This document shows, piece after piece, positions 17,219 to 34,341 of a DNA stretch of 34,341 nt. The notes under the pieces were generated by a model that saw only the letters and a list, made by a program, of their open reading frames with translations, was not told the DNA's origin and did not search any database. Positions within the stretch are counted from its first letter, which is position 1, and every line of letters starts with the position of its first letter. This DNA comes from SAR324 cluster bacterium. Its GTDB lineage: Bacteria > SAR324 > NAC60-12. The stretch is taken from NCBI GenBank assembly GCA_028281495.1, contig JANQJU010000021.1:1-34341 (forward strand), written 5' to 3'. The translations under genes and the position numbers were made by a program.

Positions 17219-18661
17219 TTAGGACAGCAACGATAACACGGCTTGTGGTGTCTGGTTGGCTTGTGCCAACATCGCCGTACCGGACTGAACAAGGATTTGA
17301 TTTTTCGTAAAGGTAGACATTTCTTCAGCCATATCCGCATCGCGCAAGACGGATTCTGCATTGGTTAAGTTCTCATGGGCGATTCGTAAGTAGTTCACGT
17401 TGCTTTCCAAGTTATTCTTCTGGAAGGCCCCCAGTTCGCCTCGTGTGGAAGCGATGTGTTCTAGGGCAGCATCGAGTAGCCGGATCGCATCTTGAGAACC
17501 TTGAGGATTGGTCACATCGATTTCTCGTAAGGACTTAAAACCGGATTCATTTTCCACTCCTCGGGCGAGGGCACGAGAGCTGGTGTTGGCCAACGAAATC
17601 GAAGTCGTTTGATCGGCGTTGCCTCCGATTTGGAACACCAAAGAATTTTGCATCACGGTGACGGTGCCTGCAAATTCGCCTTCTTCATTGGCTTTGTCGC
17701 CAGTATATCGAATGGTCAACCCTTCGATGCTTTCTGTTCCGGCTCGCCCCGTGAGTAATTGACCTCGTCCTAACGCTTCTTCACCATTGATTGTTCCTGA
17801 GACATCAAAACCTCGCGTCGATTCCACACTCACATCCCCTTGAGCAGAGACCAACCCTGCCGTGGAGCTGGCTGCCGAAAACGAATGCTCACTCCCATAT
17901 CGGGTGTGACGGAAGTGAATGAGGTTTTCAGGATTTCTCACCAACTCCACATTCAAACCCGCTTCTTTGACCTGAGCCGACAAAGCATTCAATGTGCTTT
18001 CGATGCTCTCTCCCGCCTTGGTTTGAAAACTCATAGTTTTCCCACCTTCGGTGATGGTGATTGTTTCACCCGCATCAATAATCTGCTGGGTCAGAGCGAC
18101 TTGACCAGTCAAGCTAGACCGTGTGGCCGCTTGAGTGATGCGTACCTTGTAGCCATCCACTGGAGACGTTTTGGTGTCGACAGAGGCATCCACAAATTCC
18201 AGGTTTTCACCTACAGTCACGCCGTTTGCTCCTTTGCTGCCATCGAGCAAGCGTTTGGTACCAAACTGGGTGTAGGCTGAGATTCGGTCTAAGGTGTCAA
18301 GAACATTATCGATTTCTTGTTGATCTGCTTGAAGCATCACATCGTCGTTCACCCCTTCGTTCGCGGCGTGAATCGCGATTTGTCGAGCAGAAATGAGCGC
18401 CCGGCTCACTTCATCCAGCGCGGCTTCTGTAGTTTGCACCATCGAAATACCGGTTTCCGAGTTGTCGATGGCTTGTTTGACCCCAGCAATCTGGGATCGC
18501 AAGCGCTCAGAAATCACCAAGGATGCCGGCCCATCGGCGGCACGGTTGATCTTCAACCCGGAAGCCAAACGCTCCAGGTTTTTCGCTTGCATGTCGGTGG
18601 TTCGAGTTAACTGTCGTTGAGAATTTAATGAAGTGATGTTGTGATTGATTCGTAAAGCCAT
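17219..18661 (-). CDS. fliC: Flagellin (copy 1)
   Basis: A 480-residue filament subunit secreted through the flagellar export apparatus. The N-terminal D0/D1 region (RINHNITSLNSQRQL ... LERLASGLKINRAADGPASL) and C-terminal D1/D0 region (NYLRIAHENLTNAESVLRDADMAEEM ... SGTAMLAQANQTPQAVLSLL) are strongly conserved, and the middle, about residues 165-360, is the variable surface domain. It starts MALRINHN with AAGGAGG just upstream. It shares its two ends closely with the second flagellin but differs in the centre, so the pair are diverged paralogues. Confidence 0.95.
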   Translation of the reverse strand: MALRINHNITSLNSQRQLTRTTDMQAKNLERLASGLKINRAADGPASLVISERLRSQIAGVKQAIDNSETGISMVQTTEAALDEVSRALISARQIAIHAANEGVNDDVMLQADQQEIDNVLDTLDRISAYTQFGTKRLLDGSKGANGVTVGENLEFVDASVDTKTSPVDGYKVRITQAATRSSLTGQVALTQQIIDAGETITITEGGKTMSFQTKAGESIESTLNALSAQVKEAGLNVELVRNPENLIHFRHTRYGSEHSFSAASSTAGLVSAQGDVSVESTRGFDVSGTINGEEALGRGQLLTGRAGTESIEGLTIRYTGDKANEEGEFAGTVTVMQNSLVFQIGGNADQTTSISLANTSSRALARGVENESGFKSLREIDVTNPQGSQDAIRLLDAALEHIASTRGELGAFQKNNLESNVNYLRIAHENLTNAESVLRDADMAEEMSTFTKNQILVQSGTAMLAQANQTPQAVLSLLS

Positions 18662-19485: not shown

Positions 19486-21096
19486 TTATCCTTGCGCTCC
19501 CGATAGAAGTTGTAGAACCGATTTTGGAATTTGGTTCGCTTGCGCGGCCATTGCGGTGCCCGAAGCAAGCAAGATTTGATTCTTGGTGAATCGGCTCATC
19601 TCAGCCGCCATATCCGTATCGCGGATGACAGATTCCGCATTGGTTAAATTCTCATCAGCAATTCTTAAGTAATTTAATGTGGTTTCTAGTGAGTTCTTTT
19701 GAAAGGCTCCTAGTTTCCCTCGCATTTGCGATGTTTCTTGAATCGCTTTATCGATGAGCGCGATACTGTCAGTGGCTCCTTTTGCCGTGCGGACATCAAT
19801 ATCGTCGAGACTCTCAAAGTCGCTATCGTTTTTAACTCCGCGGGATAATGTGCTGGGATGCACGCTGTCGATGTCGATCTTCACGTTTTGTTCTTGATTC
19901 GGACCGATGTGATACGAAAGCGATTTTTGGCTCACAATCACATGGCCATCGATCTGTCCTCCGACCAAGGCATCGTTATCTTCTCGCACCAACTGTCTTC
20001 CCGTCACTTCTCCTGTTTGTTCATCAATGGTTTCCACAACTTTGGTGCCCAGCACCTTGTTGTATTCCACCGCAAGGCCATCGACAGGGGTGCCTCGGCT
20101 GCCGGTTAGTGTTTGTCCATTTCCGATGGCTACATGGCCTCCGATGAATCCGGCCACATCCCGCCCCTGTTCCGCATCCAACCCCACATTCGCGATGGGG
20201 GACAGGAACCCGTTCCGGTCTCCTGTGACCGTGAACGAAGGATCCGTTCCAAATTGACGGTGCCGCACCGTGAGCATTCCGGCTTCGTTGATAAACACAT
20301 CCACATCCAACCCCGCCGTCTCGATTTCTTTTTGAAAGCCGCGGGCGACCACATCACGAATGGCCGAATCAATTTTTTCTGGATCATGAATATTCGGACG
20401 TTGTTCGACATCAGTGATCAGTTTATCAATAATCTTTTTGATGTCACCGCTGCGTGTGTCGAATGCGACCACCTTCCCCCCTTCGTTTACGGTGAAGGTG
20501 AATCCTTCTTTTGCATTTTTCGCCGTAATTGCTGTTGACCCGGAAGCCATCGCCCGTGTGGCGACTTGGCTAATATCGACGATATACCCATCGGGCGGCG
20601 AGGGCTCGGTTTCCGGGGTGGCTCCTACAAACCGGAGACCGTCTCCAACCGTGGCGCCATCGATTCCGTTGCTCCCATCAAGCAGCGGTTTGGAACCGAA
20701 TTGGGTGAACTTGGAAATCCGTTCTAACGTGGTGACCAAATTGTCGATTTCACTTTGATCCGCTTCCAGCATCGATCGATCGTTGGCCCCTTCGTTTGCC
20801 GCGTGGATGGCCAATTGGCGCATGTTGATCAGTATGTTGCTGACCTCCTGCAAGGCCCCTTCGGCCGTTTGCACCATCGTGATCGAAGTTTCAGAGTTGT
20901 CTGCTGCTTGTCGAATCCCGGCAATCTGTGCCCGCATGTTTTCTGAGATCATGAGTTGGGCAGGACCGTCGGCAGCTGTATTGATCCGCTGCCCTGAAGA
21001 CAACCGTTCTAAATTCTTTTTTGTTGCCATTGTCGTTGTGCCCAAATGCCTCAGTGCGGTTAACGACGGGATGTTGTGATTGACTCGCATTGCCAT
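19486..21096 (-). CDS. fliC: Flagellin (copy 2)
   Basis: A 536-residue flagellin. The conserved ends are present (RVNHNIPSLTALRHL ... LERLSSGQRINTAADGPAQL; NYLRIADENLTNAESVIRDTDMAAEM). The central domain (about residues 165-420) is longer than in copy 1 and differs in sequence. GGAGGAAGG precedes the ATG. The order on the minus strand is flagellin 2, two small genes, flagellin 1. Two flagellins with unlike surface domains would allow a mixed or switchable filament. Confidence 0.95.
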   Translation of the reverse strand: MAMRVNHNIPSLTALRHLGTTTMATKKNLERLSSGQRINTAADGPAQLMISENMRAQIAGIRQAADNSETSITMVQTAEGALQEVSNILINMRQLAIHAANEGANDRSMLEADQSEIDNLVTTLERISKFTQFGSKPLLDGSNGIDGATVGDGLRFVGATPETEPSPPDGYIVDISQVATRAMASGSTAITAKNAKEGFTFTVNEGGKVVAFDTRSGDIKKIIDKLITDVEQRPNIHDPEKIDSAIRDVVARGFQKEIETAGLDVDVFINEAGMLTVRHRQFGTDPSFTVTGDRNGFLSPIANVGLDAEQGRDVAGFIGGHVAIGNGQTLTGSRGTPVDGLAVEYNKVLGTKVVETIDEQTGEVTGRQLVREDNDALVGGQIDGHVIVSQKSLSYHIGPNQEQNVKIDIDSVHPSTLSRGVKNDSDFESLDDIDVRTAKGATDSIALIDKAIQETSQMRGKLGAFQKNSLETTLNYLRIADENLTNAESVIRDTDMAAEMSRFTKNQILLASGTAMAAQANQIPKSVLQLLSGAQG

Positions 21097-21515
21097 ACCT
21101 TCCTCCTGCGCTGTAAAGCGTCATTATTTATCCAGAAAATATTATTTTCATTTCATATTAGCTCGCACGCCGTTGCTGACGAGGAACTTGGATCGATTAA
21201 ACCGTATCAGTTACTCAACTGTAGAAGGTGTCGTCCGTAGTAAGACATTTAAGATGTTGGGGCTTCCTTGCCCCGTCTGAGATACCAATCCCTGGATATA
21301 GGACGACAATCCTCAAAAAAACATTATTTTTATTTCAAAAGATCTTATGCTTAGTCGTGATGTTTGTGACACAAGAGTCTAGGTCACAAAGCATTGTTTT
21401 GAACCATACACCTCGACACTCGAAAAATTCGATAGAATCTCCCTAAGGGTCTGTACGGCAAGCACGCTGCCCCGCGTTTAGGTCAGGTTGGATACGGCGT
21501 GCCTTATGTCATTCC
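21097..21515. other. Non-coding gap upstream of flagellin 2
   Basis: About 420 bp without a convincing gene. It holds the candidate sigma54 element described separately, a short GGGGC/GCCCC hairpin near 21259-21274, and AT-rich runs near the flagellin start. One TTATCCAGA (about 21128) resembles a DnaA box with one mismatch, but it is alone. Confidence 0.5.
21458..21471 (-). promoter_or_regulatory. Candidate sigma54 promoter of flagellin 2
   Basis: On the minus strand GGCAGCGTGCTTGC has the -24 GGCA and -12 TTGC of sigma54 promoters with the required spacing (GG-N10-GC). Sigma54 often drives flagellar genes. The predicted start would leave a leader of about 350 nt before the flagellin ATG, which is long and lowers confidence. 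Confidence 0.35.
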
Positions 21516-21710
21516 AATGATCTTTTATTTAATGATCTTTTATTCAACGATCTTTTACTCAACAACTCTTCATTCAATGATCTTTTATTCAATGATCTTT
21601 TATTCAATGATCTTTTAATTCAATGATCTTTTAATTCAATGATCTTTTATTCAATGATCTTTTATTTGGTGATCTTTTATTCAATGATCTTTTATTTGGT
21701 GATCTTTTTT
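21516..21710 (+). repeat. 13-unit AT-rich tandem repeat with GATC in nearly every unit
   Basis: Thirteen consecutive units of AATGATCTTTTATTC or close variants, 15 bp each, with two 16-bp units at 21606-21637 and a shorter last unit. Two units begin GGTGATC. One (21561-21575, AACAACTCTTCATTC) is eroded and lacks GATC. It is intergenic, between flagellin 2 and a small gene, and a GC-rich hairpin (GGGAGCGG/CCGCTCTCC) follows at about 21711. Confidence 0.95.
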
Positions 21711-21774
21711 GGGAGCGGCCGATTCAACCGCTCTCCTATAGAATAAAGGAAATCATTGTTGAAGAATTCCATTG

Positions 21775-25320: not shown

Positions 25321-25579
25321 ATCGTTTCCCCGTGTTTGAGTTGAGTTCAGGTGAACAAGACCGCGACGGTCTCCGGCGTCGGACATTTCCTTGAGATTCC
25401 GCAATTGCCCCCGGAAGTCAAGGGGATATTCGTTCAGCTTGGATTGTATGAACACACCTCCAATGTATCCTTTATTTGTGAATCGTATTTTAGCGTATCG
25501 AAGGGCATCAGCCTTTCGATTGCCACCAAAGCTAATAGTGCTCAATGAAAATTAATTTTATAGAAAAATGGCCATAAAT
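25321..25579. other. Gap between malic enzyme and the CRISPR-linked promoter
   Basis: No convincing gene. An 8-bp hairpin with one mismatch (25499-25518, CGAAGGGC/GCCTTTCG) may belong to the malic enzyme leader. The last 40 bases are AT-rich and precede the promoter at 25580. Confidence 0.5.
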
Positions 25580-25608
25580 TTGACAAAAATTATCTTTTCA
25601 ACCATACT
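25580..25608 (+). promoter_or_regulatory. Promoter of the mini-array/zipper transcript
   Basis: A perfect TTGACA (25580-25585), a 17-bp spacer and CATACT (25603-25608, four of six including the key A2 and T6). Transcription should start near 25615, about 48 nt before the first degenerate repeat. The -10 and start region are the sequence matched by the pseudo-spacer. Confidence 0.65.
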
Positions 25609-25619
25609 GCTTTTAGTAT
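25604..25619 (+). promoter_or_regulatory. Pseudo-spacer match / dyad over the -10 element
   Basis: ATACTGCTTTTAGTAT differs from the first 16 bases of the pseudo-spacer (ATACTTCTTTTAGTAT) only at position 6. It covers most of the -10 and the predicted start. It is also a dyad, ATACT-N6-AGTAT, so a protein operator is the competing reading. The three bases 5' of it are ACC, unlike the GTN-type PAM of characterised I-D systems. Confidence 0.6.
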
Positions 25620-25662
25620 AAAATCTAGTCCCATCAGCATTATCATTCACAACCGTTGTAAT

Positions 25663-25738
25663 GTCGCGAATCCCCGTGTGGGGTTATGAGATACTTCTTT
25701 TAGTATCCAGGTTCCGAATCCCCTGTGAGGGGTAGACG
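25663..25738 (+). CRISPR. Degenerate two-repeat mini-array with 20-nt pseudo-spacer
   Basis: Pseudo-repeat 1 (25663-25690) matches the array repeat at 24 of 28 positions, keeps the CCCC...GGGG stem and the whole TTATGAG 3' handle, and differs at positions 3, 4, 14 and 17. The 20-nt pseudo-spacer ATACTTCTTTTAGTATCCAG is at 25691-25710. Pseudo-repeat 2 (25711-25738) keeps the first 13 bases and the stem but has a 5-nt loop (TGTGA) and a diverged tail. Orientation is that of the main array and the cas genes. Processing by Cas6 would give a short crRNA-like RNA with a normal 5' handle. Known relatives in concept are CreR and CreA RNAs of other type I systems. The pseudo-spacer matches the upstream promoter and not, as far as I can see, anything else in the window. 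Confidence 0.8.
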
Positions 25739-25769
25739 TTCAATTCATTTTCGCCAGTAGGAGAAAATT

Positions 25770-25922
25770 ATGGATGACCAAACCAGCGTAATCACTCAAC
25801 TCAAAACCTATGTGCACAATTTGAGGCGTGAAAATGCAGTGCTACGACGTGAAAACTCAATTCTACAGCAGACTATTAAAGAAAAAAACAGGAAAATCAA
25901 TGGGTTAAAAGAGTTAATTTAA
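25770..25922 (+). CDS. Small leucine-zipper protein next to the mini-array
   Basis: A 50-codon gene with GTAGGAG nine bases upstream, 31 bp after pseudo-repeat 2 and followed by a terminator. Almost the whole protein is a regular coiled coil: d-positions L11, L18, L25, L32, (K39), L46 and a-positions I8, V15, N22, N29, I36, I43. Asn at two a-positions is typical of parallel dimers. There is no basic DNA-binding stretch before the zipper, no cysteine and no membrane helix, so it is a dimeric scaffold or inhibitor-like peptide rather than a bZIP. I recognise no family. Its place in the transcript suggests it is controlled by the mini-array. Confidence 0.65.
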   Translation: MDDQTSVITQLKTYVHNLRRENAVLRRENSILQQTIKEKNRKINGLKELI

Positions 25923-25944
25923 TTTCTTATCCAATCGCGAGTGT

Positions 25945-25986
25945 AATTGAGGGAAATTTAATTTTAAGTTTTCCCTCAATTCTTTT
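25945..25986 (+). terminator. Intrinsic terminator between zipper gene and cas6
   Basis: AATTGAGGGAAA (25945-25956) pairs perfectly with TTTCCCTCAATT (25970-25981) around a 13-nt AT-rich loop, and CTTTT follows. It begins 22 bp after the zipper gene stop. It should end most transcripts from the 25580 promoter before the cas operon. Confidence 0.7.
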
Positions 25987-26075
25987 GCGACATTATTTGT
26001 CGTATGACTCAGCTACATTAGTGATCAACTCCTGTTGAGGATTAGACTTGTCGTTGTTAGCTCAACTTGATGTGC

Positions 26076-26105
26076 TTGAAACCTTACGGAATTCCTTTCT
26101 ATTAG
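26076..26105 (+). promoter_or_regulatory. Candidate promoter of the cas operon
   Basis: TTGAAA (26076-26081), an 18-bp spacer and TATTAG (26100-26105) give a moderate sigma70 match 31 bp before the cas6 ATG. The terminator upstream makes a separate promoter likely, but this one is only the best candidate by eye. Confidence 0.35.
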
Positions 26106-26136
26106 TTTGATTAACTCTATTTCAGGAGGTGCGTGT

Positions 26137-26865
26137 ATGTATCGTGTGAGGCTGCAATTGCCTGAGAAGGAGGTGGCGCAATATCGCCATCTGGACTTGA
26201 TTCATGATGCGTTGGTTCAAGCTTGGCTGACGGCGGGAGCTGCCTCGGAGGAGGTGGTTGGCATGGATGCATTGCCCTGGACATTTGCTGTGTTGGGATA
26301 TCATCGAAAGCATCAGGGCTTTGCTCACTCGGTGGTGGTTTCCACTCCGTCTGAAAAGCTAACGAAATGTCTTCAGCAATTCGATCCACAATCGGTGCGT
26401 TATGCCCGAGCACAATATGGGGAATTGTTGGACTTCAGCAATGCGTCCATCCTTCCTGAACCGGACCCCATATTGCCAGGAATCCAAATGTTGGGGATGG
26501 TGTGTTTGTCCCCCATTGCGGTGAGTCGTCCTGGTTCGAGACCCAAACGTTGGGAGACTGATATATCCCAAGTGGATCTGTCAGCGGTTGCCAATAAACG
26601 ACTGTCTCGCATCGCAGGACGTTCCGTCACATTGAAGGTGCAACCGGATTCGTTGTTTGTGATGGCCAACCCCCAACATTCGGTTTTGGTTCAAGACAAA
26701 CTTCGCCCCAAAGGGAAAGGAGGTTATGTGCTCGGTATGGAAGCACCAATCGTGGCAGCCGGAAGCGAAGCCGATTTGCGATTGTTGTGGTACGCCGGAA
26801 TTGGGGAGAAAACCCGCAATGGTTTCGGCTGTTTAGGACTTCTTGACGAAGGAGTGGGCCGATGA
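26137..26865 (+). CDS. cas6: CRISPR RNA endoribonuclease Cas6
   Basis: A 242-residue RNase that cuts pre-crRNA within each repeat. The start is ATG 26137, six bases after a perfect AGGAGGT; an in-frame ATG at 26107 precedes that signal and is unlikely. The C-terminal glycine-rich loop (GIGEKTRNGFGCLGL, about residues 221-235) is the family signature. It overlaps cas10d by ATGA, so translation is coupled. Placing cas6 first is unlike the common I-D order, where it follows csc1. With a CCCC-ATGC-GGGG stem in the repeat, cutting at the stem base would leave a 7-8-nt handle ending ATGAG. Confidence 0.85.
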   Translation: MYRVRLQLPEKEVAQYRHLDLIHDALVQAWLTAGAASEEVVGMDALPWTFAVLGYHRKHQGFAHSVVVSTPSEKLTKCLQQFDPQSVRYARAQYGELLDFSNASILPEPDPILPGIQMLGMVCLSPIAVSRPGSRPKRWETDISQVDLSAVANKRLSRIAGRSVTLKVQPDSLFVMANPQHSVLVQDKLRPKGKGGYVLGMEAPIVAAGSEADLRLLWYAGIGEKTRNGFGCLGLLDEGVGR

Positions 26866-29768
26866 CACCCCAACATAAACCTAGCCTCCATGAAACGATT
26901 GAAATCGTTGAACAAGAGTACAGTGCCTTCTTGGACCAGGTGGTTGGTCAACACGTCCTTCAAGAACGCACTCGCTCCTTACAAGAACGGGAACAAAAGC
27001 AAATTGACAAAGGCACTCATGTGGATGTGCGTGTGGTGAAGCTGATGTCGATCAGTGGTAAGGGAGGTGCTCATCCAGCCCCCGACCGTCAGCACCAATT
27101 CTCCGCTTATACCAATGTGACTTTGTTGGACCATCTTCTCTCAGTGGTTCGGGGTGCGATGACTGTAGCGGCCTATCACTGGTGTTATCTATGGTCTCAA
27201 CATCCTGAAAGTGAGGCACTCCCAGAAGACCGTTTGCGTCAGCGTTTGAGGACCATTGCAGCAATTGGCTTCCTGCACGATCTCGATAAAATAGAACAAC
27301 TCGAACGTGATACTTCCCTCACCTTAGACCAAGTGGAGTATGCGTTAACACGCTATGGATTGATTCCCTTCTTGCAATCTGATGCCCCCCCTTTAACGCC
27401 CTCGCAGATCCGCTATTTGATTGCTGAAGCAGAAGCCACGCAATCCAATCGCTATCCTTTGGATAAAGACCTCCCCAAAGTGAGCAAAGCTGACATGGCG
27501 TATGTGGCCTTGGCCGACAAGTTGGACGGTCTTTGGTTGTCATCGGCCCCCTTAGAAGAGCGAATCCGGCGCATCCGACAACGGATCCAACGCATGGATT
27601 CAATGGACGCTGATTGGTTCCCAGCCCTCCATGTCGTGGATATATTCGACCCTCACCATCCGTTCCTGTTGGATGGTCTCCAGTCCGAAATTTCCTGGAG
27701 TTGCGTGAGTTTAACGGGTCTGCCCCCGCTCATCGAAACCCATCATGATGGCCGCTTGATCATGCTGATCCACCAAGATCAGTCTCAAGAAGTGATCGAA
27801 GAGGCCTTGGACGCCTTCATTGAATCCCTGCCCTTCCAATTGGAACTCACGGTTTCCAATCGAGGTGTACCGGAGTTACGCAATGGCCGTCCTAGTCATC
27901 GGAGCTTGACCCAAAAATTCTTACCCAAATTGGAACCTGGGAAATTGAGTGACCTGTTTCGCGTGAAAGCCGATTTGCGCGAAATTGTCACGGCTCCGTT
28001 GGATTCCCTGTTGCGTCCGTGGGATCTTGCCCCCCGATGGCCTAAAAACTTTGGACAGTTGGCTTCCCTATTTGCCCAGCCGGAAACGTTATCGAACAAT
28101 GCCTTAGATGCCCTCCGAACCGCAGCACACCTCGCCCTCCTACTGAACCTGAAAGTCCCCGCTAAACCCAAAGACGGCATTCCTACCAGCGAGATTCGAG
28201 AACAAGAACTGTTGAATATTTTACCGGAAGCACCTCCCGAATGGATCACTTCGATTGCAGACCCGGCTTCCCGACGAACAATGACGGCTCTTTGGTGTTG
28301 GTCACTCACCGGGTCCCACCCAGAGGTGATGGAGCATATCTGGGGAGAAACCGGTTTATTGCAACGTTGGTTGGAAGGCGACAGCCAACGTCCAGGATTT
28401 CAACGTTTTTTTGCGGGAGACGGTGCGTTCATCTGCGAACAAGTTCGAGAGCATTTCCAACAACTGCTGTCTCAGAAACAACGAGTGGTCACAAACGAGG
28501 ATGCCTCGCACCATTGCCTGTTCACCAATGAACCGGTGGGGCTTTCTAAATTCGAAAAAGCCTGGGGGTTGTACGAAGTGAAAGTATCGGCTTTTTCGGG
28601 TCGGGACGGTCGACTCGAAACCGTGACTTCAGAACAGAGCGACACCCACATTGGTCCCGTTTCTATTGCTGAACACAAACTGCGGATGGCAAAGCATCCG
28701 GGTGGCAAAACCTCCGGTGTCCCCACGTTGATTTCCTCACCATCAACCGTTGGACTTTTTGGTGGGTTGAATTTGAAGAATTCACTTGGCGCATACTCCA
28801 TGTATGACCTCAGCCGTCAGGAGATTAAAAAAGGGCAGATTTACACAGGCAATGAGATCTACCGGGGTCGGTACCGCCTCGCTCGTTATGAACGGCTTTC
28901 CGAAAAGCTAGCGGATCAAATTGTCGAGTTGCAGCTTTTGATAAAAGCCTGCCTGCGCTTGGGACGACCGTTTCATTTGTTCCGAGGTCTACCAGTGCCA
29001 GTGAGAGATTTTTTCTATTACGATGCCATGCCTCGAATTCTGCAACAGATTGTCGGCGGCAATCGATTTCGCTTGGAAGAACTTCCGGGAGCTTTGAATC
29101 GCCTGAACATGGCTCACACCCTGATGGAAGCCCCTGGTTTGGGTTATGAGGTAGTACGACTGTATGCCAATCCCAGCACTCGATTTCAGGCAATTTGCGT
29201 CGCCTGGGTACACTTTCATCAGTTGGAAGGCACTCAAGCAAAATTTTATCATTCCGTGCTGCTAGAGTTGCAGCGACATTATTCAACCCATTTACAAGAG
29301 GGACTCATGAGTGAATCCGATGAACCGTTAGTCCGAATGGGCCAAGCGGCCGCAACCATCCAACAGTTTCCTCGTTCGGGCGGGAACAATGCTGAATTGT
29401 TGGTGTTCAATCTCGCCTTTGGTGCCGCCATCGACGCCCGGAAGGCTGGCGTGGGGACTCCGGTCTCTTTGGTTTATGCCGTGGCAGATGCGCTTCGTTA
29501 CAAACTGGAAAAAGGCAAAGCCGAAGGTCCCATTCACACACTCGACGACCGTTGCTTAGCCTTTGCTCAGGTTTTTATTGACGAGGTTTGGAACGGTGTG
29601 TGCCAAGGCCGTCCCCCCAAACAGGCAAAAAAAAGAACGTTAGGTGGTATCTACCGCATGGCCTTTGTTCAAACTTGGCGGCAACGATTTGCAGAAATCA
29701 AAGCCAAAAAAGCTGCTCAAGCCGAAAAAGCCGCTCAAGGCAATCCACCTCCATCTGAAAACCCATAA
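26862..29768 (+). CDS. cas10d: Cas10d (Csc3), large subunit with HD nuclease of type I-D
   Basis: A 968-residue large subunit of the type I-D interference complex. The N-terminal HD domain shows H91 (LLDHLLSV) and H139-D140 (IGFLHDLDKIEQ), where target cutting is expected, since the Cas3 protein of this locus has no HD domain. No GGDD cyclase motif is seen, consistent with Cas10d not making cyclic oligoadenylates. The C-terminal 150 residues are helical and contain an internal start for Cas11d (separate entry). The tail is Lys/Ala-rich. Its ATG overlaps the cas6 stop. Confidence 0.88.
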   Translation: MTPQHKPSLHETIEIVEQEYSAFLDQVVGQHVLQERTRSLQEREQKQIDKGTHVDVRVVKLMSISGKGGAHPAPDRQHQFSAYTNVTLLDHLLSVVRGAMTVAAYHWCYLWSQHPESEALPEDRLRQRLRTIAAIGFLHDLDKIEQLERDTSLTLDQVEYALTRYGLIPFLQSDAPPLTPSQIRYLIAEAEATQSNRYPLDKDLPKVSKADMAYVALADKLDGLWLSSAPLEERIRRIRQRIQRMDSMDADWFPALHVVDIFDPHHPFLLDGLQSEISWSCVSLTGLPPLIETHHDGRLIMLIHQDQSQEVIEEALDAFIESLPFQLELTVSNRGVPELRNGRPSHRSLTQKFLPKLEPGKLSDLFRVKADLREIVTAPLDSLLRPWDLAPRWPKNFGQLASLFAQPETLSNNALDALRTAAHLALLLNLKVPAKPKDGIPTSEIREQELLNILPEAPPEWITSIADPASRRTMTALWCWSLTGSHPEVMEHIWGETGLLQRWLEGDSQRPGFQRFFAGDGAFICEQVREHFQQLLSQKQRVVTNEDASHHCLFTNEPVGLSKFEKAWGLYEVKVSAFSGRDGRLETVTSEQSDTHIGPVSIAEHKLRMAKHPGGKTSGVPTLISSPSTVGLFGGLNLKNSLGAYSMYDLSRQEIKKGQIYTGNEIYRGRYRLARYERLSEKLADQIVELQLLIKACLRLGRPFHLFRGLPVPVRDFFYYDAMPRILQQIVGGNRFRLEELPGALNRLNMAHTLMEAPGLGYEVVRLYANPSTRFQAICVAWVHFHQLEGTQAKFYHSVLLELQRHYSTHLQEGLMSESDEPLVRMGQAAATIQQFPRSGGNNAELLVFNLAFGAAIDARKAGVGTPVSLVYAVADALRYKLEKGKAEGPIHTLDDRCLAFAQVFIDEVWNGVCQGRPPKQAKKRTLGGIYRMAFVQTWRQRFAEIKAKKAAQAEKAAQGNPPPSENP
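29307..29768 (+). CDS. cas11d: Putative Cas11d small subunit, internal in-frame start in cas10d
   Basis: ATG 29307 is in frame with cas10d (codon 816) and is preceded by GAGGGA with three bases between, a usable Shine-Dalgarno. It would give a 153-residue helical protein (MSESDEPLVRMGQAAATIQQ...) identical to the Cas10d C-terminus. Type I-D complexes studied elsewhere use a small subunit made exactly this way, so the position and size fit. Expression here is inferred. Confidence 0.55.
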   Translation: MSESDEPLVRMGQAAATIQQFPRSGGNNAELLVFNLAFGAAIDARKAGVGTPVSLVYAVADALRYKLEKGKAEGPIHTLDDRCLAFAQVFIDEVWNGVCQGRPPKQAKKRTLGGIYRMAFVQTWRQRFAEIKAKKAAQAEKAAQGNPPPSENP

Positions 29769-29861
29769 CCTCGATTATTTTATCCATGCGGACCGACACG
29801 ATGGAAGATCTCATCGTTGTTTGGATCGTGATATCATCCAACCATGATTCCAGGAGACCTG

Positions 29862-30911
29862 ATGCAAGCGATTCTTCCTTATTTGAGCAGTTTGACCACT
29901 CTGGTGCAGGAAAGCGCCAAAGACGATAAAAATGTGTATGTCCATCCCGCGTTTAAAAATTTGGGGGCGGTCAGTATGGTGTTGATTCGAGAAGCGATTG
30001 GCCCTGTGATTTTTCGCAATGCAGAGCAGGAAATCACCGATATCGAAATCGAACACGAAGTGCATGTGAGAGCAGTGCCCAACAAGTTCAAATTCATCGA
30101 ACGCAACCGAGGCCTGCAAATCCTGCGCTATTTTGGCACCGGAGGCCGCCTCCCCCAGAACAAAACCGTGTTCCGAAAAGGTCAAAAAATTTCAGAAGTG
30201 TATGACCTCAATACCCTCGTATTTGGGGATTCTGCCATGCAGGAAGCACGGGTGCTTTCGGTGAAAGCGGCCGTGAATTATTCCGACGCTTTGAGCATTC
30301 AGCCCAAAGAGTATTGTGTGGATGAAACCTTCCACAACCGAGCCTTCGAAGACGGCACTTTATTTGATGCCACTGAAAAGAAAAATTCTGACAACCTGTT
30401 CAACCGACACTTCATTGAACCAGGAACTTTGATGGTGCAGGTGCTTTCCACCCGTGGCAAGGTGTTGCCCCCGGAAGGCCTGGATCACTTATTATTGTGC
30501 ATCGGATTTGCTGGGGCTTATGGGGGACAAACCTCCATCACCGGAACAAATATTCGAACCCATGTGGTCGGAGTGTATGCCGATCAGTTTGAACAAGCGG
30601 AATCGTCTCCCTATGAACTGATTCGGCAGCTCCGACAACAAAAACTCTCGGAAACCGATCAACGTTCGGTGGAAACGGTGAAATCTCATCTTCACAAAAT
30701 TATGACGGTCTCTTCTCCTGAAACCTCCACCCCATCAGCGGATGTAGAAAGCTCCCAACGTGCTAAACATGCGGCTTGTGTCTCCGGGAACGAAGCTCAC
30801 ACGTACCTACAAAATTTGATGCAAAAGTTCGATCAAGACGAGTTGCGCCCACAGTACCAAGAGGCTCAGGAGAAGGTGGGTAATTTGTTTGTTCAATGGT
30901 TTGGCAAATAG
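29862..30911 (+). CDS. csc2: Csc2 (Cas7d), crRNA backbone subunit
   Basis: A 349-residue Cas7-family protein that polymerises along the crRNA spacer in the type I-D complex. Family-like segments include VYVHPAFKNLGAVSMVLIRE, LRYFGTGGRLPQNKTVFRKG, YSDALSIQPKEYCVDETFHN and the Gly-rich GFAGAYGGQTSITGTNIRTH. ATG 29862 is chosen because AGGAGA lies four bases before it; the ATG at 29844 lacks a site. It is separated by 93 bp from cas10d and followed by csc1 after 7 bp. Confidence 0.9.
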   Translation: MQAILPYLSSLTTLVQESAKDDKNVYVHPAFKNLGAVSMVLIREAIGPVIFRNAEQEITDIEIEHEVHVRAVPNKFKFIERNRGLQILRYFGTGGRLPQNKTVFRKGQKISEVYDLNTLVFGDSAMQEARVLSVKAAVNYSDALSIQPKEYCVDETFHNRAFEDGTLFDATEKKNSDNLFNRHFIEPGTLMVQVLSTRGKVLPPEGLDHLLLCIGFAGAYGGQTSITGTNIRTHVVGVYADQFEQAESSPYELIRQLRQQKLSETDQRSVETVKSHLHKIMTVSSPETSTPSADVESSQRAKHAACVSGNEAHTYLQNLMQKFDQDELRPQYQEAQEKVGNLFVQWFGK

Positions 30912-30918
30912 GAGGTCT

Positions 30919-31560
30919 ATGCAACTCATCGGAATGCAGGCCACCACACTGACCCCATTCGCTTACCACAGCCTGATGGTACAGAACGGAACGGCCACTC
31001 TCCCGGAATTGATCAGCGACCACGCCATTGCATTCGGATTGGCAGGGACGTTGGGGCTGCTTTCTTCTGCCGGGGCCTTACCAACTCAGAAAAACTATCG
31101 TCAACACTTAACCGCAATGCCGTATCGCTGTTCGGTGTTCCGCACCGAGGATCCTCGGTTGTTGTCTCCCTTGATCCGTCGGCTCAATTTGGATGCCGAA
31201 GCTGGATACAAAGAAAAAATCGATAACGTCGCTCGGAAGGGGAATCTGAAAACTTTCTTTTCCACCCAAGAAGTGCCACAGGGCCAAACCTTCACGGGCC
31301 TGCTGTTCGGTTGGGATGATTTTGACCCCTTTGCCCACTATGGACGCGATCACTTTGTCATCCGCATCGGCTTGCATCGCAATGGCATGGTTCGGTTGGA
31401 AAAAACAGAGGTGCCGCAGGTGTGTCTCAACGTTTCCACCGCAGCCTTATTTGGCCGGGGTGCGTCGCTTTCGGTAGGACGGTATCTGCTGCACAATTTG
31501 CAGTTGACTCCACCGATGCCACCCGAAATGGCAGGAAAGGAGGTGGCCACATGGCAGTGA
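30919..31560 (+). CDS. csc1: Csc1 (Cas5d-type), crRNA 5'-handle-binding subunit of type I-D
   Basis: A 213-residue protein starting at ATG 30919 just after AGGAGGT (short spacing); a frame start at 30889 would lie inside csc2. The beta-rich sequence (MQLIGMQATTLTPFAYHSLM ... FTGLLFGWDDFDPFAHYG ... RLEKTEVPQVCLNVSTAALF) fits Csc1, the Cas5-like subunit that caps the 5' handle and takes part in PAM recognition. It overlaps the cas3 start by ten bases. Confidence 0.85.
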   Translation: MQLIGMQATTLTPFAYHSLMVQNGTATLPELISDHAIAFGLAGTLGLLSSAGALPTQKNYRQHLTAMPYRCSVFRTEDPRLLSPLIRRLNLDAEAGYKEKIDNVARKGNLKTFFSTQEVPQGQTFTGLLFGWDDFDPFAHYGRDHFVIRIGLHRNGMVRLEKTEVPQVCLNVSTAALFGRGASLSVGRYLLHNLQLTPPMPPEMAGKEVATWQ

Positions 31561-33545
31561 AGGTAGCCAAACATTATGTCGGTTCACTTCCTGGAATTGG
31601 ATTGTCACAGTTTCAGCAGGATTTGTTATCCGATGCCGCCCCCGTCAGGATTGCCGACGCCCCGACCGGAACGGGAAAAAGCTATGCGTTCCAAATGGCC
31701 ATGCAGTCGTCAAAGCGTATCTTGTTCATTGTCCCCACCAAACGTTTAGCCCAAAATTTAGCCGGAAGCTTGGTAGACGACCTGATCCACAACGATTGGC
31801 CTCCTCAAAAAGCCCAACGTGCGGTTGAAATCTGGAGTGGTGACGAAACCCAACGCTTGCGGGAAGCCGGCATGGTGAATGTGCAAGCTCACCGGCTTCG
31901 TCAATTCACGGTGCTGGACCAATTGAGCGATACCGGTGAAATGATCTTTGCCATTCCCGAGTCGCTGAGTTACTTGCTGCTGCGTGATCGGAAAGATACG
32001 GGAGTCTCAGGAAAGACCATCCTCGACTTGATGACAGACTTCGAACACATTGTATTTGATGAATTCCACACCATCGATCCACGAGGATTTGGATTGGCCG
32101 CTGCTTTATCGATCCTAGCGGCCCGACGCACGGGAGTGCGAGCGAAGGTGAGCTTTCTTTCGGCCACTCCGCTGCGATTGCGTCCTGTGCTGGAAAAGTT
32201 GGGAATTCCTTCGGATGCCATCCATGAATTGAAGGAAACGGTGGGACCACAACAACATGAAACCGACCGAGCGATTCACGGAGACGTTCGATTGCATTTG
32301 TCGGATGCTCCCCGGTTGGTCGATGTGCTGGAGTCCCAATCCGAACGAATCCAAGCCTATTTGCAACGCGATCCAAACCATCAGATGGTGGTGATTTACG
32401 ACCGTTTGGATGAACTGAAACGCCAGCAACCCGCGTGGCAAGCCTTGGTGTCGCAGTGGCAGATTCCCGAAGAGAAAGTTTTGGTGATCAATAGCCTGGA
32501 CGATAGCGGACGGCAATCGGAAACAAACGAAGGTTTTGCGTCTGGCCGGAAGCACTCACCGGATGATTTTTCCATAATTTTCGCCACCGCAAGCGTGGAA
32601 ATGGGGGTGACGTTTCGAAAAGGGGACCTCCTGTTCATGGAGCCAGGATTTGCACCGATGAACTTTGTTCAACGTTACGGACGCTGCGCTCGCAAAGGGG
32701 CGGATGGCGATGTGTTCGTTCGGGTGGATCCCGCCTCACCTTTTTCCAATCCTTGGATTCGTGATTGGGTGGAATGGTATCGTTGTCACGACGGCCAATC
32801 GGTCACCATTCATGATCTGACGAAGTGCCTCAGCAGCCCCGTCGACAAAGCGTATCGCGATGTGGATGCGGAGGCCGATCTCGACACTTTTGGTGAATTC
32901 CCTCTCCGCTCGGCCTACTGTGCAGGACTTTACTGGAATGCCCTCAAAGCTCACTGGAGTTTGGGAGGCCATCGCTTCCAGGAAATTCAGCCCTTCACCC
33001 CCAAAACGGCCAAACACATTTGGACGTTGCTGCAAAAAGTCCGAAAAATGGAATCGGACCGCCAACTGGGAACAGCCGCCAAAATCTGGTGCGACCGCTT
33101 TGAAGCCCAGGCGTTCACACTGCGTGACATTGGCAAACGGATCCGGGTGATTGAATCGGAAGGCAATGTGCGTTCGGCCAGCCTCACTTGGTTGCAACGC
33201 TCCACCGAAGTTTTGAACCGTGGCCAGGCGGGCCACGATAAAGAAGGCGATTTTGTGAAGATTCCTGGCGTTCTGGAAGACTACCTGCTGCCAGAAAATC
33301 GGCGGGTCAGCGTGCAATACCAAGCCCTGCTCCCTCATCGGCAAGACACCTGCTGTCTCAAATCCAACGAAGACCTGGTGAGAGCCTGGAACGATTGTCT
33401 CGAAGACAATCGTGGTGGCCTCAACCGCAAGGCTTGGAAACAATATCGATCCAGCATGGAAGCCGCTCAACAATTAACTCGATACACCGGCTTGGTCGTA
33501 TGCGATGACGAAGATTTTGAGATAGGTGCTCACTATGTCATCTAG
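31551..33545 (+). CDS. cas3: Cas3' helicase (type I-D, no HD domain)
   Basis: A 664-residue superfamily 2 helicase that unwinds and translocates on target DNA. Motifs: APTGTGKS (37-44), VPTKRLAQNL (61-70), DEFH (170-173), SATPLR (204-209), IIFATASVEMGVTF (342-355) and QRYGRCAR (374-381). No HD nuclease domain is present, as in I-D loci, where Cas10d carries it. The correct start is ATG 31551, preceded by AAAGGAGGT; the long open frame from 31422 runs back inside csc1. It ends 144 bp before the array. Confidence 0.9.
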   Translation: MAVKVAKHYVGSLPGIGLSQFQQDLLSDAAPVRIADAPTGTGKSYAFQMAMQSSKRILFIVPTKRLAQNLAGSLVDDLIHNDWPPQKAQRAVEIWSGDETQRLREAGMVNVQAHRLRQFTVLDQLSDTGEMIFAIPESLSYLLLRDRKDTGVSGKTILDLMTDFEHIVFDEFHTIDPRGFGLAAALSILAARRTGVRAKVSFLSATPLRLRPVLEKLGIPSDAIHELKETVGPQQHETDRAIHGDVRLHLSDAPRLVDVLESQSERIQAYLQRDPNHQMVVIYDRLDELKRQQPAWQALVSQWQIPEEKVLVINSLDDSGRQSETNEGFASGRKHSPDDFSIIFATASVEMGVTFRKGDLLFMEPGFAPMNFVQRYGRCARKGADGDVFVRVDPASPFSNPWIRDWVEWYRCHDGQSVTIHDLTKCLSSPVDKAYRDVDAEADLDTFGEFPLRSAYCAGLYWNALKAHWSLGGHRFQEIQPFTPKTAKHIWTLLQKVRKMESDRQLGTAAKIWCDRFEAQAFTLRDIGKRIRVIESEGNVRSASLTWLQRSTEVLNRGQAGHDKEGDFVKIPGVLEDYLLPENRRVSVQYQALLPHRQDTCCLKSNEDLVRAWNDCLEDNRGGLNRKAWKQYRSSMEAAQQLTRYTGLVVCDDEDFEIGAHYVI

Positions 33546-33689
33546 TGAAAGGCATCCCAACACCTTGTCCACTTCGACCCCGGATGGAGTGCGAAACCCC
33601 AGGGTTCGAAGTAAATCCAACAGGGCCACCTCCACGTTTCAGGAGAGGTGGCATGGTCAACTTGAGGAGAATCTTCAATGATTCCAAGG
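33546..33689 (+). promoter_or_regulatory. Probable array leader
   Basis: 144 bp between cas3 and the first repeat. It contains an 8-bp perfect hairpin, GCCACCTC (33625-33632) with GAGGTGGC (33645-33652), and a small CGAAACCCC...GGGTTCG inverted repeat near 33592. No strong promoter is seen. The leader side is inferred from the shared orientation of the repeats, the mini-array and the cas genes. Confidence 0.45.
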
Positions 33690-34229
33690 GTTCCGAATCC
33701 CCATGCGGGGTTATGAGGACGGCGATTGTTCATTGTGGCCACGAAGGATGATCGTTCCGAATCCCCATGCGGGGTTATGAGGAGGTAAGTGAGAATGCTC
33801 ATAGAGAGTTGCATCTAGTTCCGAATCCCCATGCGGGGTTATGAGTCCAGGACTATCCCAGGCTCGCAATGAATTTCCAAAGTTCCGAATCCCCATGCGG
33901 GGTTATGAGGTTGCCCCTTCTGGGCGGAATGAAAATGAAATCATTGTTCCGAATCCCCATGCGGGGTTATGAGTCCAGAGCGGTTTCGACAAGGCTATCG
34001 TGGAATATGGTTCCGAATCCCCATGCGGGGTTATGAGTACAGTGGGAAGACTAGCGATGGAGCTTAAAGAAGTGTTCCGAATCCCCATGCGGGGTTATGA
34101 GCGCACTAATTCCATTGCAAGCTGTGCCGAAGAAGAAGTTCCGAATCCCCATGCGGGGTTATGAGACTCGGTCAGTCGTCACGGCTATCACTAAAAAACG
34201 GGTTCCGAATCCCCATGCGGGGTTATGAG
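33690..34229 (+). CRISPR. CRISPR array: nine 28-bp repeats, eight 36-bp spacers
   Basis: Repeats start at 33690, 33754, 33818, 33882, 33946, 34010, 34074, 34138 and 34202, an unbroken 64-bp period. All nine are identical, including the last. The repeat opens GTTCCGAAT, has a 4-bp CCCC-ATGC-GGGG stem-loop and ends TTATGAG. All eight spacers are exactly 36 bp and none visibly matches the window. No adaptation gene lies within view. Short reverse-strand open frames beginning MGIRN in this region are artefacts of the repeat. Confidence 0.98.
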
Positions 34230-34266
34230 TTGCCATACAGTACTATTGCGTAATCCGCTCCACCTC

Positions 34267-34341
34267 GATCACTCAATCCACCGCAGTTGGATCACCGAAT
34301 CCAGTAAACCTGGATCACTCAATCCAATCCGTTGGATCACC
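34267..34341 (+). repeat. 22-23-bp tandem repeats downstream of the array
   Basis: Units at 34267-34289, 34290-34312 and 34313-34334 and a partial unit from 34335 share GATCAC(T/C)(C/G)AATCCA followed by a variable eight-base part. They begin 37 bp after the last CRISPR repeat and run off the window. They are unrelated to the CRISPR repeat in sequence and spacing. Confidence 0.85.

What the first reader, a model, noticed from the sequence alone, without database searches (positions are those of the whole stretch)
25580..25738. Degenerate mini-array whose pseudo-spacer matches its own promoter: candidate type I-D autoregulatory guide
Seen: two degenerate copies of the array repeat flank a 20-nt pseudo-spacer (25691-25710). 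Its first 16 bases match 25604-25619, over the -10 and start of a TTGACA-17-CATACT promoter, at 15 of 16 positions. The only mismatch is at position 6, and position 18 is another mismatch; in type I effectors every sixth crRNA base is flipped out and need not pair. Known: CreR and CreA RNAs in other type I systems use partial matches to direct Cascade to repress, not cut, a promoter. Inference: Csc2/Csc1/Cas10d loaded with this short guide binds and silences the promoter, giving feedback that senses effector or crRNA supply. I know of no described I-D example with this layout. Caveat: the 5' flank is ACC, not the GTN-type PAM of studied I-D systems.
Basis: partly seen in the sequence, partly recalled or inferred. 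Interest (0 to 1): 0.93.

Follow-up and report, generated by a model that had tools for sequence, protein, structure and literature searches.

The report
Type I-D self-silencing CRISPR guide
Just upstream of a type I-D CRISPR system, two worn CRISPR repeats flank a 20-base pseudo-spacer that matches, at 15 of its first 16 bases, the predicted promoter just ahead of it, so the locus likely makes a small guide RNA that would steer the CRISPR complex to turn that promoter down, a control circuit known from other CRISPR types but not seen for type I-D in the papers we could search.

Summary
Two degenerate copies of the array repeat flank a 20-nt pseudo-spacer whose first 16 bases match 25604-25619, over a predicted promoter, at 15 of 16 positions (mismatch at position 6). 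No control reached this (0 of 3000 and 0 of 1000 shuffles, 0 of 334 real spacers). The first repeat keeps the crRNA 5' handle and stem, the second its 5' half and stem, much as in published CreA guides. The 20-nt length (array spacers 34-38 nt) is in the range that represses without cutting in type I-B. New here: the promoter is followed by an orphan 50-codon leucine-zipper ORF and a strong hairpin; and the WYL regulator gene found upstream of cas6 in 29 of 31 testable relatives is missing from the window, this module standing in its place. A protein-operator regulon is unlikely: the full site occurs only at these two places in 9.7 Mb. Against: flank ACC rather than GTN, a self-complementary pseudo-spacer, a promoter call no better than chance scans, no close relative, no RNA data. 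Best read as a type I-D variant of CreTA/CreR autorepression, untested.

The parts
25580..25608 (+). predicted sigma-70-type promoter TTGACA-17-CATACT
   Evidence: 10 of 12; prediction only, number of such sites not above shuffles
25604..25619 (+). predicted guide target (protospacer), over the -10 and start region; 5' flank ACC
25663..25690 (+). degenerate repeat psiR1; 24 of 28 to the array repeat; stem CCCC/GGGG and 3' handle GTTATGAG intact
25691..25710 (+). pseudo-spacer, 20 nt
25711..25738 (+). degenerate repeat psiR2; first 13 bases identical to the array repeat, CCCC/GGGG stem kept around a 5-base loop, 3' tail changed
25770..25922 (+). orphan 50-aa ORF with leucine-zipper heptads (L11, L18, L25, L32, L46); AGGAG at 25759-25763
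25935..25990 (+). strong hairpin between the ORF and cas6, terminator-like but with a broken T run
   Evidence: z -6.6; the simple terminator scan did not call it
26137..26865 (+). cas6d
26862..29768 (+). cas10d
29844..30911 (+). csc2 (cas7d)
30889..31560 (+). csc1 (cas5d)
31422..33545 (+). cas3d helicase ORF; its best profile match begins at residue 44, so the true start is probably later
33690..34229 (+). main CRISPR array, nine repeats GTTCCGAATCCCCATGCGGGGTTATGAG, 36-nt spacers

Best explanation
The two-repeat mini-array at 25663-25738 is likely transcribed from the predicted promoter at 25580 and would be cut by Cas6 into a crRNA-like guide (8-nt handle, 20-nt pseudo-spacer, psiR2-derived 3' handle) that is predicted to bring the type I-D effector (Cas10d, Csc2, Csc1, Cas6) back to 25604-25619 and so repress, without cutting, the operon that makes the guide and the 50-aa ORF. 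Shown here: the sequence anatomy, the 15-of-16 match starting at pseudo-spacer base 1, the wear pattern of the repeats, the ORF, the hairpin, and the absence of the WYL regulator. Inferred: transcription, Cas6 processing, loading, binding and repression. The inferred outcome is negative feedback: when the effector is lost, blocked by an anti-CRISPR or filled with other crRNAs, the promoter opens and the ORF (and possibly cas6-cas3d by read-through) is made. Whether the ORF product is a toxin, as in CreTA/CrePA, or a regulator is unknown; the short spacer would favour binding without cleavage by analogy with type I-B.
For: Match beyond all controls, unique in the 34-kb window; the 14-base pattern ATACTNCTTTTNGTAT occurs without mismatch only at these two sites of the 9.7-Mb genome. 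Positions 1-5 and 7-16 match; 1-5 plus 7-11 is the seed of two characterised CreA guides (PMC8501985, passages). All four psiR1 changes avoid both stem arms and the 8-nt handle (0.035 if changes fell at random); psiR2 keeps its first 13 bases and stem; in published creA genes the 3'-handle part of psiR2 is usually closer to the repeat than that of psiR1. Pseudo-spacer 20 nt against 34-38 nt for 334 of 335 array spacers; shortened spacers repress without interference in type I-B, at 24 nt or less in Haloarcula and 26 nt or less in Parageobacillus. H. hubeiense creTA also lies immediately upstream of its cas operon and its operon promoter is auto-repressed by CreA. The five effector genes are present and open. 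A 50-codon ATG ORF with a ribosome site arose in 1 of 2000 shuffles, without the site in 44 of 2000. The WYL gene of 29 of 31 testable relatives is absent, as is the TGTCAT/ATGACA element seen upstream of cas6 in 18 of 30 relatives checked.
Against: The target's 5' flank is ACC, not the GTN/GTH PAM of studied type I-D systems; the PAM of this branch is unknown and spacer searches gave none. The promoter call is weak support: 3 promoter-like sites against 2.3 expected. The pseudo-spacer can fold on itself, though no better than shuffles (-9.6 kcal/mol, z -0.34), and the target is a perfect 5-bp inverted repeat, as a protein operator would be. In haloarchaeal CreTA psiR1 is the more diverged repeat; here it is the less diverged one (24 of 28 against 19 of 28 ungapped). 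In Haloarcula a 20-nt spacer repressed less than 21-24 nt at one site. [quoted passage not shown] No close relative: 1 of 52 genomes of the phylum, the window's own, has this Cas6; of 29 relatives that can be judged, 28 show no mini-array near cas6 and the one that does, L018, has no clear target. L024 and L040 lack WYL without having a mini-array. No RNA data.
Confidence: 0.62

Rival explanations
1. CreR-type reading (nested in the best one; differs in which genes matter): the guide mainly tunes the cas6-cas3d operon through read-through from the 25580 promoter, in place of the WYL repressor used by relatives.
For: On the + strand between 25380 and 26200 the only promoter-like sites found are at 25580 and 25595; with looser rules the best match in the 147 bp before cas6 is 9 of 12. 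No WYL gene in the window. CreR is reported for I-B, I-E and V-A (review PMC13131331, passages).
Against: A strong hairpin lies between the ORF and cas6, and the ORF with its own ribosome site sits directly behind the mini-array. The 29 relatives scanned also show only 8-10 of 12 before cas6, so lack of a clear second promoter proves little.
Confidence: 0.28
2. A protein operator pair: a local repressor dimer binds the inverted repeat ATACT-N6-AGTAT at both 25604-25619 and 25691-25706 (87 bp apart), and the CRISPR-like repeats are incidental.
For: Both sites are perfect 5-bp inverted repeats with a 6-base gap.
Against: The six central bases also match at 5 of 6, which a palindromic operator does not require; the match begins exactly at the repeat-spacer border; both flanking repeats are worn in guide-like fashion. 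The inverted repeat occurs at 4 places in 9.7 Mb (control pattern 8), the other two with unrelated cores, one inside a 695-codon open frame and one not in any long frame, and at none in 31 relatives: no sign of a regulon. A repressor dedicated to this one promoter is not excluded.
Confidence: 0.15
3. A dying two-repeat array: a remnant whose short spacer arose by duplication of promoter DNA, with no function now.
For: Terminal repeats of arrays often wear at the 3' end (recalled), which would account for psiR2; the window shows no cas4-cas1-cas2 between cas3d and the array as Lamprocystis has.
Against: psiR1 changes avoid stem and handle; the spacer length lies outside 34-38 nt, the range of 334 of 335 spacers; the target lies on the predicted promoter that would transcribe it.
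Confidence: 0.17

Closest known systems
[quoted passage not shown] a bacterial CreTA with I-F in Acinetobacter (PMC10097628, abstract in search listing)
   Same: A pseudo-spacer with one (H. hispanica) or two worn repeats; seed match at 1-5 and 7-11 to the operon promoter; located in or next to the cas locus; H. hubeiense operon auto-repressed by CreA (PMC8501985, passages)
   Different: Type I-D effector here; guide lies before, not after, the small ORF; 50-codon leucine-zipper ORF instead of a toxic RNA with a 4- or 6-codon ORF; 16-nt rather than about 11-nt match; 20-nt pseudo-spacer; no known PAM at the target; psiR1 less worn than psiR2
CreR (cas-regulating RNA; types I-B, I-E, V-A as summarised in PMC13131331 and PMC12737573, passages)
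   Same: crRNA-like RNA partially matching a promoter at the cas locus; expected feedback on effector supply
   Different: Not reported for I-D in what could be read; an ORF and a hairpin separate the promoter from cas6. The primary paper (Liu 2023) is not held
CrePA (CRISPR-repressed protein toxin; PMC12737573, passages)
   Same: A protein, not an RNA, would be the product kept silent
   Different: CreP typically has a KilA-N domain; the 50-aa ORF has no Pfam match
WYL regulator Sll7009 of the Synechocystis I-D system (PMC10212523, passages)
   Same: Negative control of a I-D system
   Different: Protein repressor; a WYL gene is present in 29 of 31 testable relatives and not in the window

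Membership tests
CreTA / creA guide | Two degenerate copies of the co-occurring repeat flanking a pseudo-spacer | tested here: met
CreTA / creA guide | Pseudo-spacer seed (1-5, 7-11) complementary to a promoter of the same module | tested here: met
   the promoter itself is predicted only
CreTA / creA guide | Target flanked by the system's PAM | tested here: inconclusive
   ACC, not GTN; PAM of this branch could not be derived
CreTA / creA guide | psiR1 more diverged than psiR2 (haloarchaeal trend, not a strict criterion) | tested here: not met
   psiR1 24 of 28, psiR2 19 of 28 ungapped; trend stated in PMC9458426
CreTA / creA guide | Cas6-processed guide RNA with 8-nt 5' handle | not testable with these tools
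   handle sequence GTTATGAG intact at 25683-25690; no RNA data
CreTA | Repressed gene is toxic when released | not testable with these tools
   the 50-aa ORF is an orphan
CreR | Target promoter drives the cas operon | tested here: inconclusive
   only promoter-like sites on the + strand at 25580 and 25595, but a hairpin before cas6
Type I-D CRISPR-Cas | cas10d, csc2 (cas7d), csc1 (cas5d), cas3d, cas6d present | tested here: met
Ordinary immune CRISPR array | Identical repeats and full-length (34-38 nt) spacer | tested here: not met

The most novel reading that the evidence does not exclude
At this type I-D locus an RNA-guided feedback circuit has taken the place of the WYL repressor that nearly all relatives carry: the effector, led by a 20-nt guide encoded in the leader of a new leucine-zipper protein gene, silences its own leader promoter, so any loss or blocking of the effector releases that protein. 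This would be the first type I-D self-silencing guide and a swap of protein control for guide-RNA control at one site.
Probability: 0.3. Interest if true: 0.78.

Novelty: new variant of a known kind. Interest (0 to 1): 0.63.

Why it matters
If true, guide-RNA autorepression extends to the type I/III hybrid effector I-D, and a single site shows a protein repressor being replaced by guide-RNA control. The small leucine-zipper ORF becomes a testable candidate for a gene kept silent by the CRISPR effector and released by anti-CRISPRs. The 16-nt match with a 20-nt spacer would also show at what spacer length a I-D effector binds without cutting.

Tried and rejected
PAM from protospacers: 5 of the 18 arrays were used as queries (L029 and L033 against plasmids, L010 and the window against phages, L012 against 204 genomes); 13 were not. 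Only arrays and short partial matches (E 3e-4 to 0.01) came back; the flanks of those were not inspected, and no PAM was derived.

Comparative co-variation test: not possible, no close relative.

L018 (Thiomargarita) as a second self-targeting case: mini-array-like (24-nt pseudo-spacer), but no target found in the locus or by pattern in its genome, where hits (14) were no more than controls (16).

Global protein operator: rejected as a regulon. Rfam: one sub-threshold hit (22.6 bits, gathering score 45) on 25886-25995, regarded as chance. PHROG hits of the ORF (best 6e-4, unknown function) regarded as generic coiled-coil similarity. Structure prediction was not used: an orphan 50-aa coiled coil would not decide function. 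Papers sought but not held: Shmakov 2023 and Liu 2023 (both recalled, Liu also cited), so a I-D case there cannot be excluded. One paper search of ten was left unused.

Full report
What is there. It carries a type I-D system: cas6d, cas10d, csc2, csc1, cas3d and a nine-repeat array. Upstream of cas6 lies the module of the finding: predicted promoter (25580-25608), psiR1, a 20-nt pseudo-spacer and psiR2 (25663-25738), then an ORF of 50 codons (25770-25922) and a strong hairpin (25935-25990, z -6.6). The finding mentions neither the ORF nor the hairpin.

Is it more than chance? Pseudo-spacer bases 1-16 match 25604-25619 at 15 of 16 positions, the mismatch being at position 6. Beyond base 16 the mismatches are at 17, 18 and 20. 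Scored as a guide, the run is 16; the maximum was 13 in 3000 shuffles of the pseudo-spacer, 14 in 1000 dinucleotide shuffles of the region, 12 for 334 real spacers from 18 arrays, and 7 at any other site of the window. In the genome the pattern ATACTNCTTTTNGTAT occurs without mismatch only at these two sites. The promoter, by contrast, is only a good consensus match: the scan found 3 sites in the region, shuffles 2.3 on average.

Does it look like a processed guide? psiR1 differs from the repeat at positions 3, 4, 14 and 17 only; both stem arms and the last eight bases, GTTATGAG, are intact. psiR2 keeps its first 13 bases and a CCCC/GGGG stem with a five-base loop; its tail is changed. So the parts that would end up in a mature guide are largely kept (the psiR2 loop is not), and changes fall in parts that would be cut away or in loops. 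The random chance for psiR1 alone is 0.035 with stem and handle defined by me, modest taken alone. This resembles published creA genes (PMC8501985, abstract and passages; PMC9458426, introduction and passages), except that in haloarchaea psiR1 is the more worn repeat and here it is the less worn one. Spacer lengths: 334 of 335 array spacers are 34-38 nt, the other, 11 nt, lying in a decayed array (repeats had to match at 23 of 28 or more, and a few irregular gaps were dropped); the pseudo-spacer is 20 nt. In two type I-B systems shortened spacers repress without cutting (passages of PMC10551041, and PMC10989794), though 20 nt was weaker than 21-24 nt at one Haloarcula site.

Relatives. Thirty loci from GTDB genomes and one viral contig carry a related Cas6 (36-60% identity). 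In the 17 relatives with a usable array the repeats resemble the window's. Outside recognisable arrays, paired worn repeats near cas6 were found only in the window and in L018, Candidatus Thiomargarita nelsonii, on the other strand in the leader of a DUF3800 gene, with a 24-nt pseudo-spacer and no clear target. L015 (88 bp of upstream DNA) and L016 (one lone repeat copy, 25 of 28, at the contig end) cannot be judged; so 28 of 29 judgeable relatives show none. Copies worn below about 18 of 28 would be missed. None of the 51 other genomes held for the window's phylum has this Cas6, so the requested co-variation test cannot be made.

The missing regulator. A divergent gene upstream of cas6 encodes a WYL-domain protein: Pfam found WYL in 26 of 27 such proteins scanned (L031 gave none). 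A profile built from these 26 found a copy there in 29 of 31 testable relatives (the 31 relatives plus L059, less L015); 26 of the 29 are the profile's own members, the new ones being L017, L031 and L059. L024 and L040 had none, and in L018 the gene is displaced by the DUF3800 gene. The window has none; its other contigs were not searched for it. L024 and L040 also lack a mini-array, so loss of WYL is not always matched by a mini-array. WYL protein Sll7009 is a negative regulator of Synechocystis I-D (PMC10212523, passages). In 18 of 30 relatives checked an element TGTCAT or ATGACA lies within 300 bp upstream of cas6, in 5 of them as the inverted pair TGTCAT-N5-ATGACA; it is absent from 25546-26136.

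The ORF. AGGAG ends six bases before its ATG. An ATG ORF of 50 codons or more arose in 44 of 2000 shuffles, and with a ribosome site in 1 of 2000. It reads as a leucine zipper (L11, L18, L25, L32, L46; heptad reading mine). It matches only itself among the 2 candidates the protein search scored, only itself in its own genome and nothing in Pfam; PHROG hits are weak and coiled-coil-like. CreT toxins are described as extremely diversified and poorly conserved, so an orphan is not unexpected, but no toxicity can be claimed.

Problems. The target's flank is ACC, while I-D systems studied use GTN or GTH (passages of PMC10212523 and PMC9123187). The window's Cas10d matches no relevant solved structure by sequence (its only hits at E up to 1, about 0.8, are an unrelated dehydrogenase) and its Csc2 none at E up to 0.1 (I did not check that the solved I-D complexes are in that copy), so this branch may use another PAM; that is inference. 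The pseudo-spacer can fold on itself, pairing the last handle base with C17, though no better than shuffles (z -0.34). The target is an inverted repeat, which keeps a protein operator alive, although that inverted repeat occurs at just four places in the genome against eight for the control pattern, and nowhere in 488,650 bases of relatives.

Verdict. Guide-directed autorepression by the type I-D effector is the best reading (0.62), a variant of CreTA/CreR. Whether it guards the ORF or tunes the cas genes is open. In nine literature searches the listings, and the passages I read, showed no I-D case, but the two papers I recall as most relevant are not held.

Noticed in passing
L018:9685-9825: Thiomargarita nelsonii I-D locus: worn repeats (with a partly repeated first copy) around a 24-nt pseudo-spacer in the leader of a DUF3800 gene that lies between the WYL gene and cas6; no target found.
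   Followed up: partly
window 33545-33690: The array follows cas3d directly, whereas Lamprocystis (L010) has cas4, cas1 and cas2 before its array; the only Cas1 found in the window's genome is on another contig (C53).
   Followed up: partly
upstream of cas6 in L011, L012, L013, L020, L032: Inverted pair TGTCAT-N5-ATGACA at about -90 to -72, a likely WYL operator.
   Followed up: partly
window 21478-21723: Run of about 15-base tandem units (TTCAATGATCTTTTA-like) on the 5' side of a flagellin gene.
   Followed up: no
window 34252-34326: 23-base tandem units (AATCCA...GGATCAC) at the contig end, just after the array.
   Followed up: no
window 17219-18661 and 19486-21096: Two flagellin genes on the minus strand, whose starts share a 48-base stretch at 77%.
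   Followed up: no
L038:8504-8916: Telmatospirillum I-D locus has a second, seven-repeat array on the opposite strand, beyond the WYL gene upstream of cas6.
   Followed up: no
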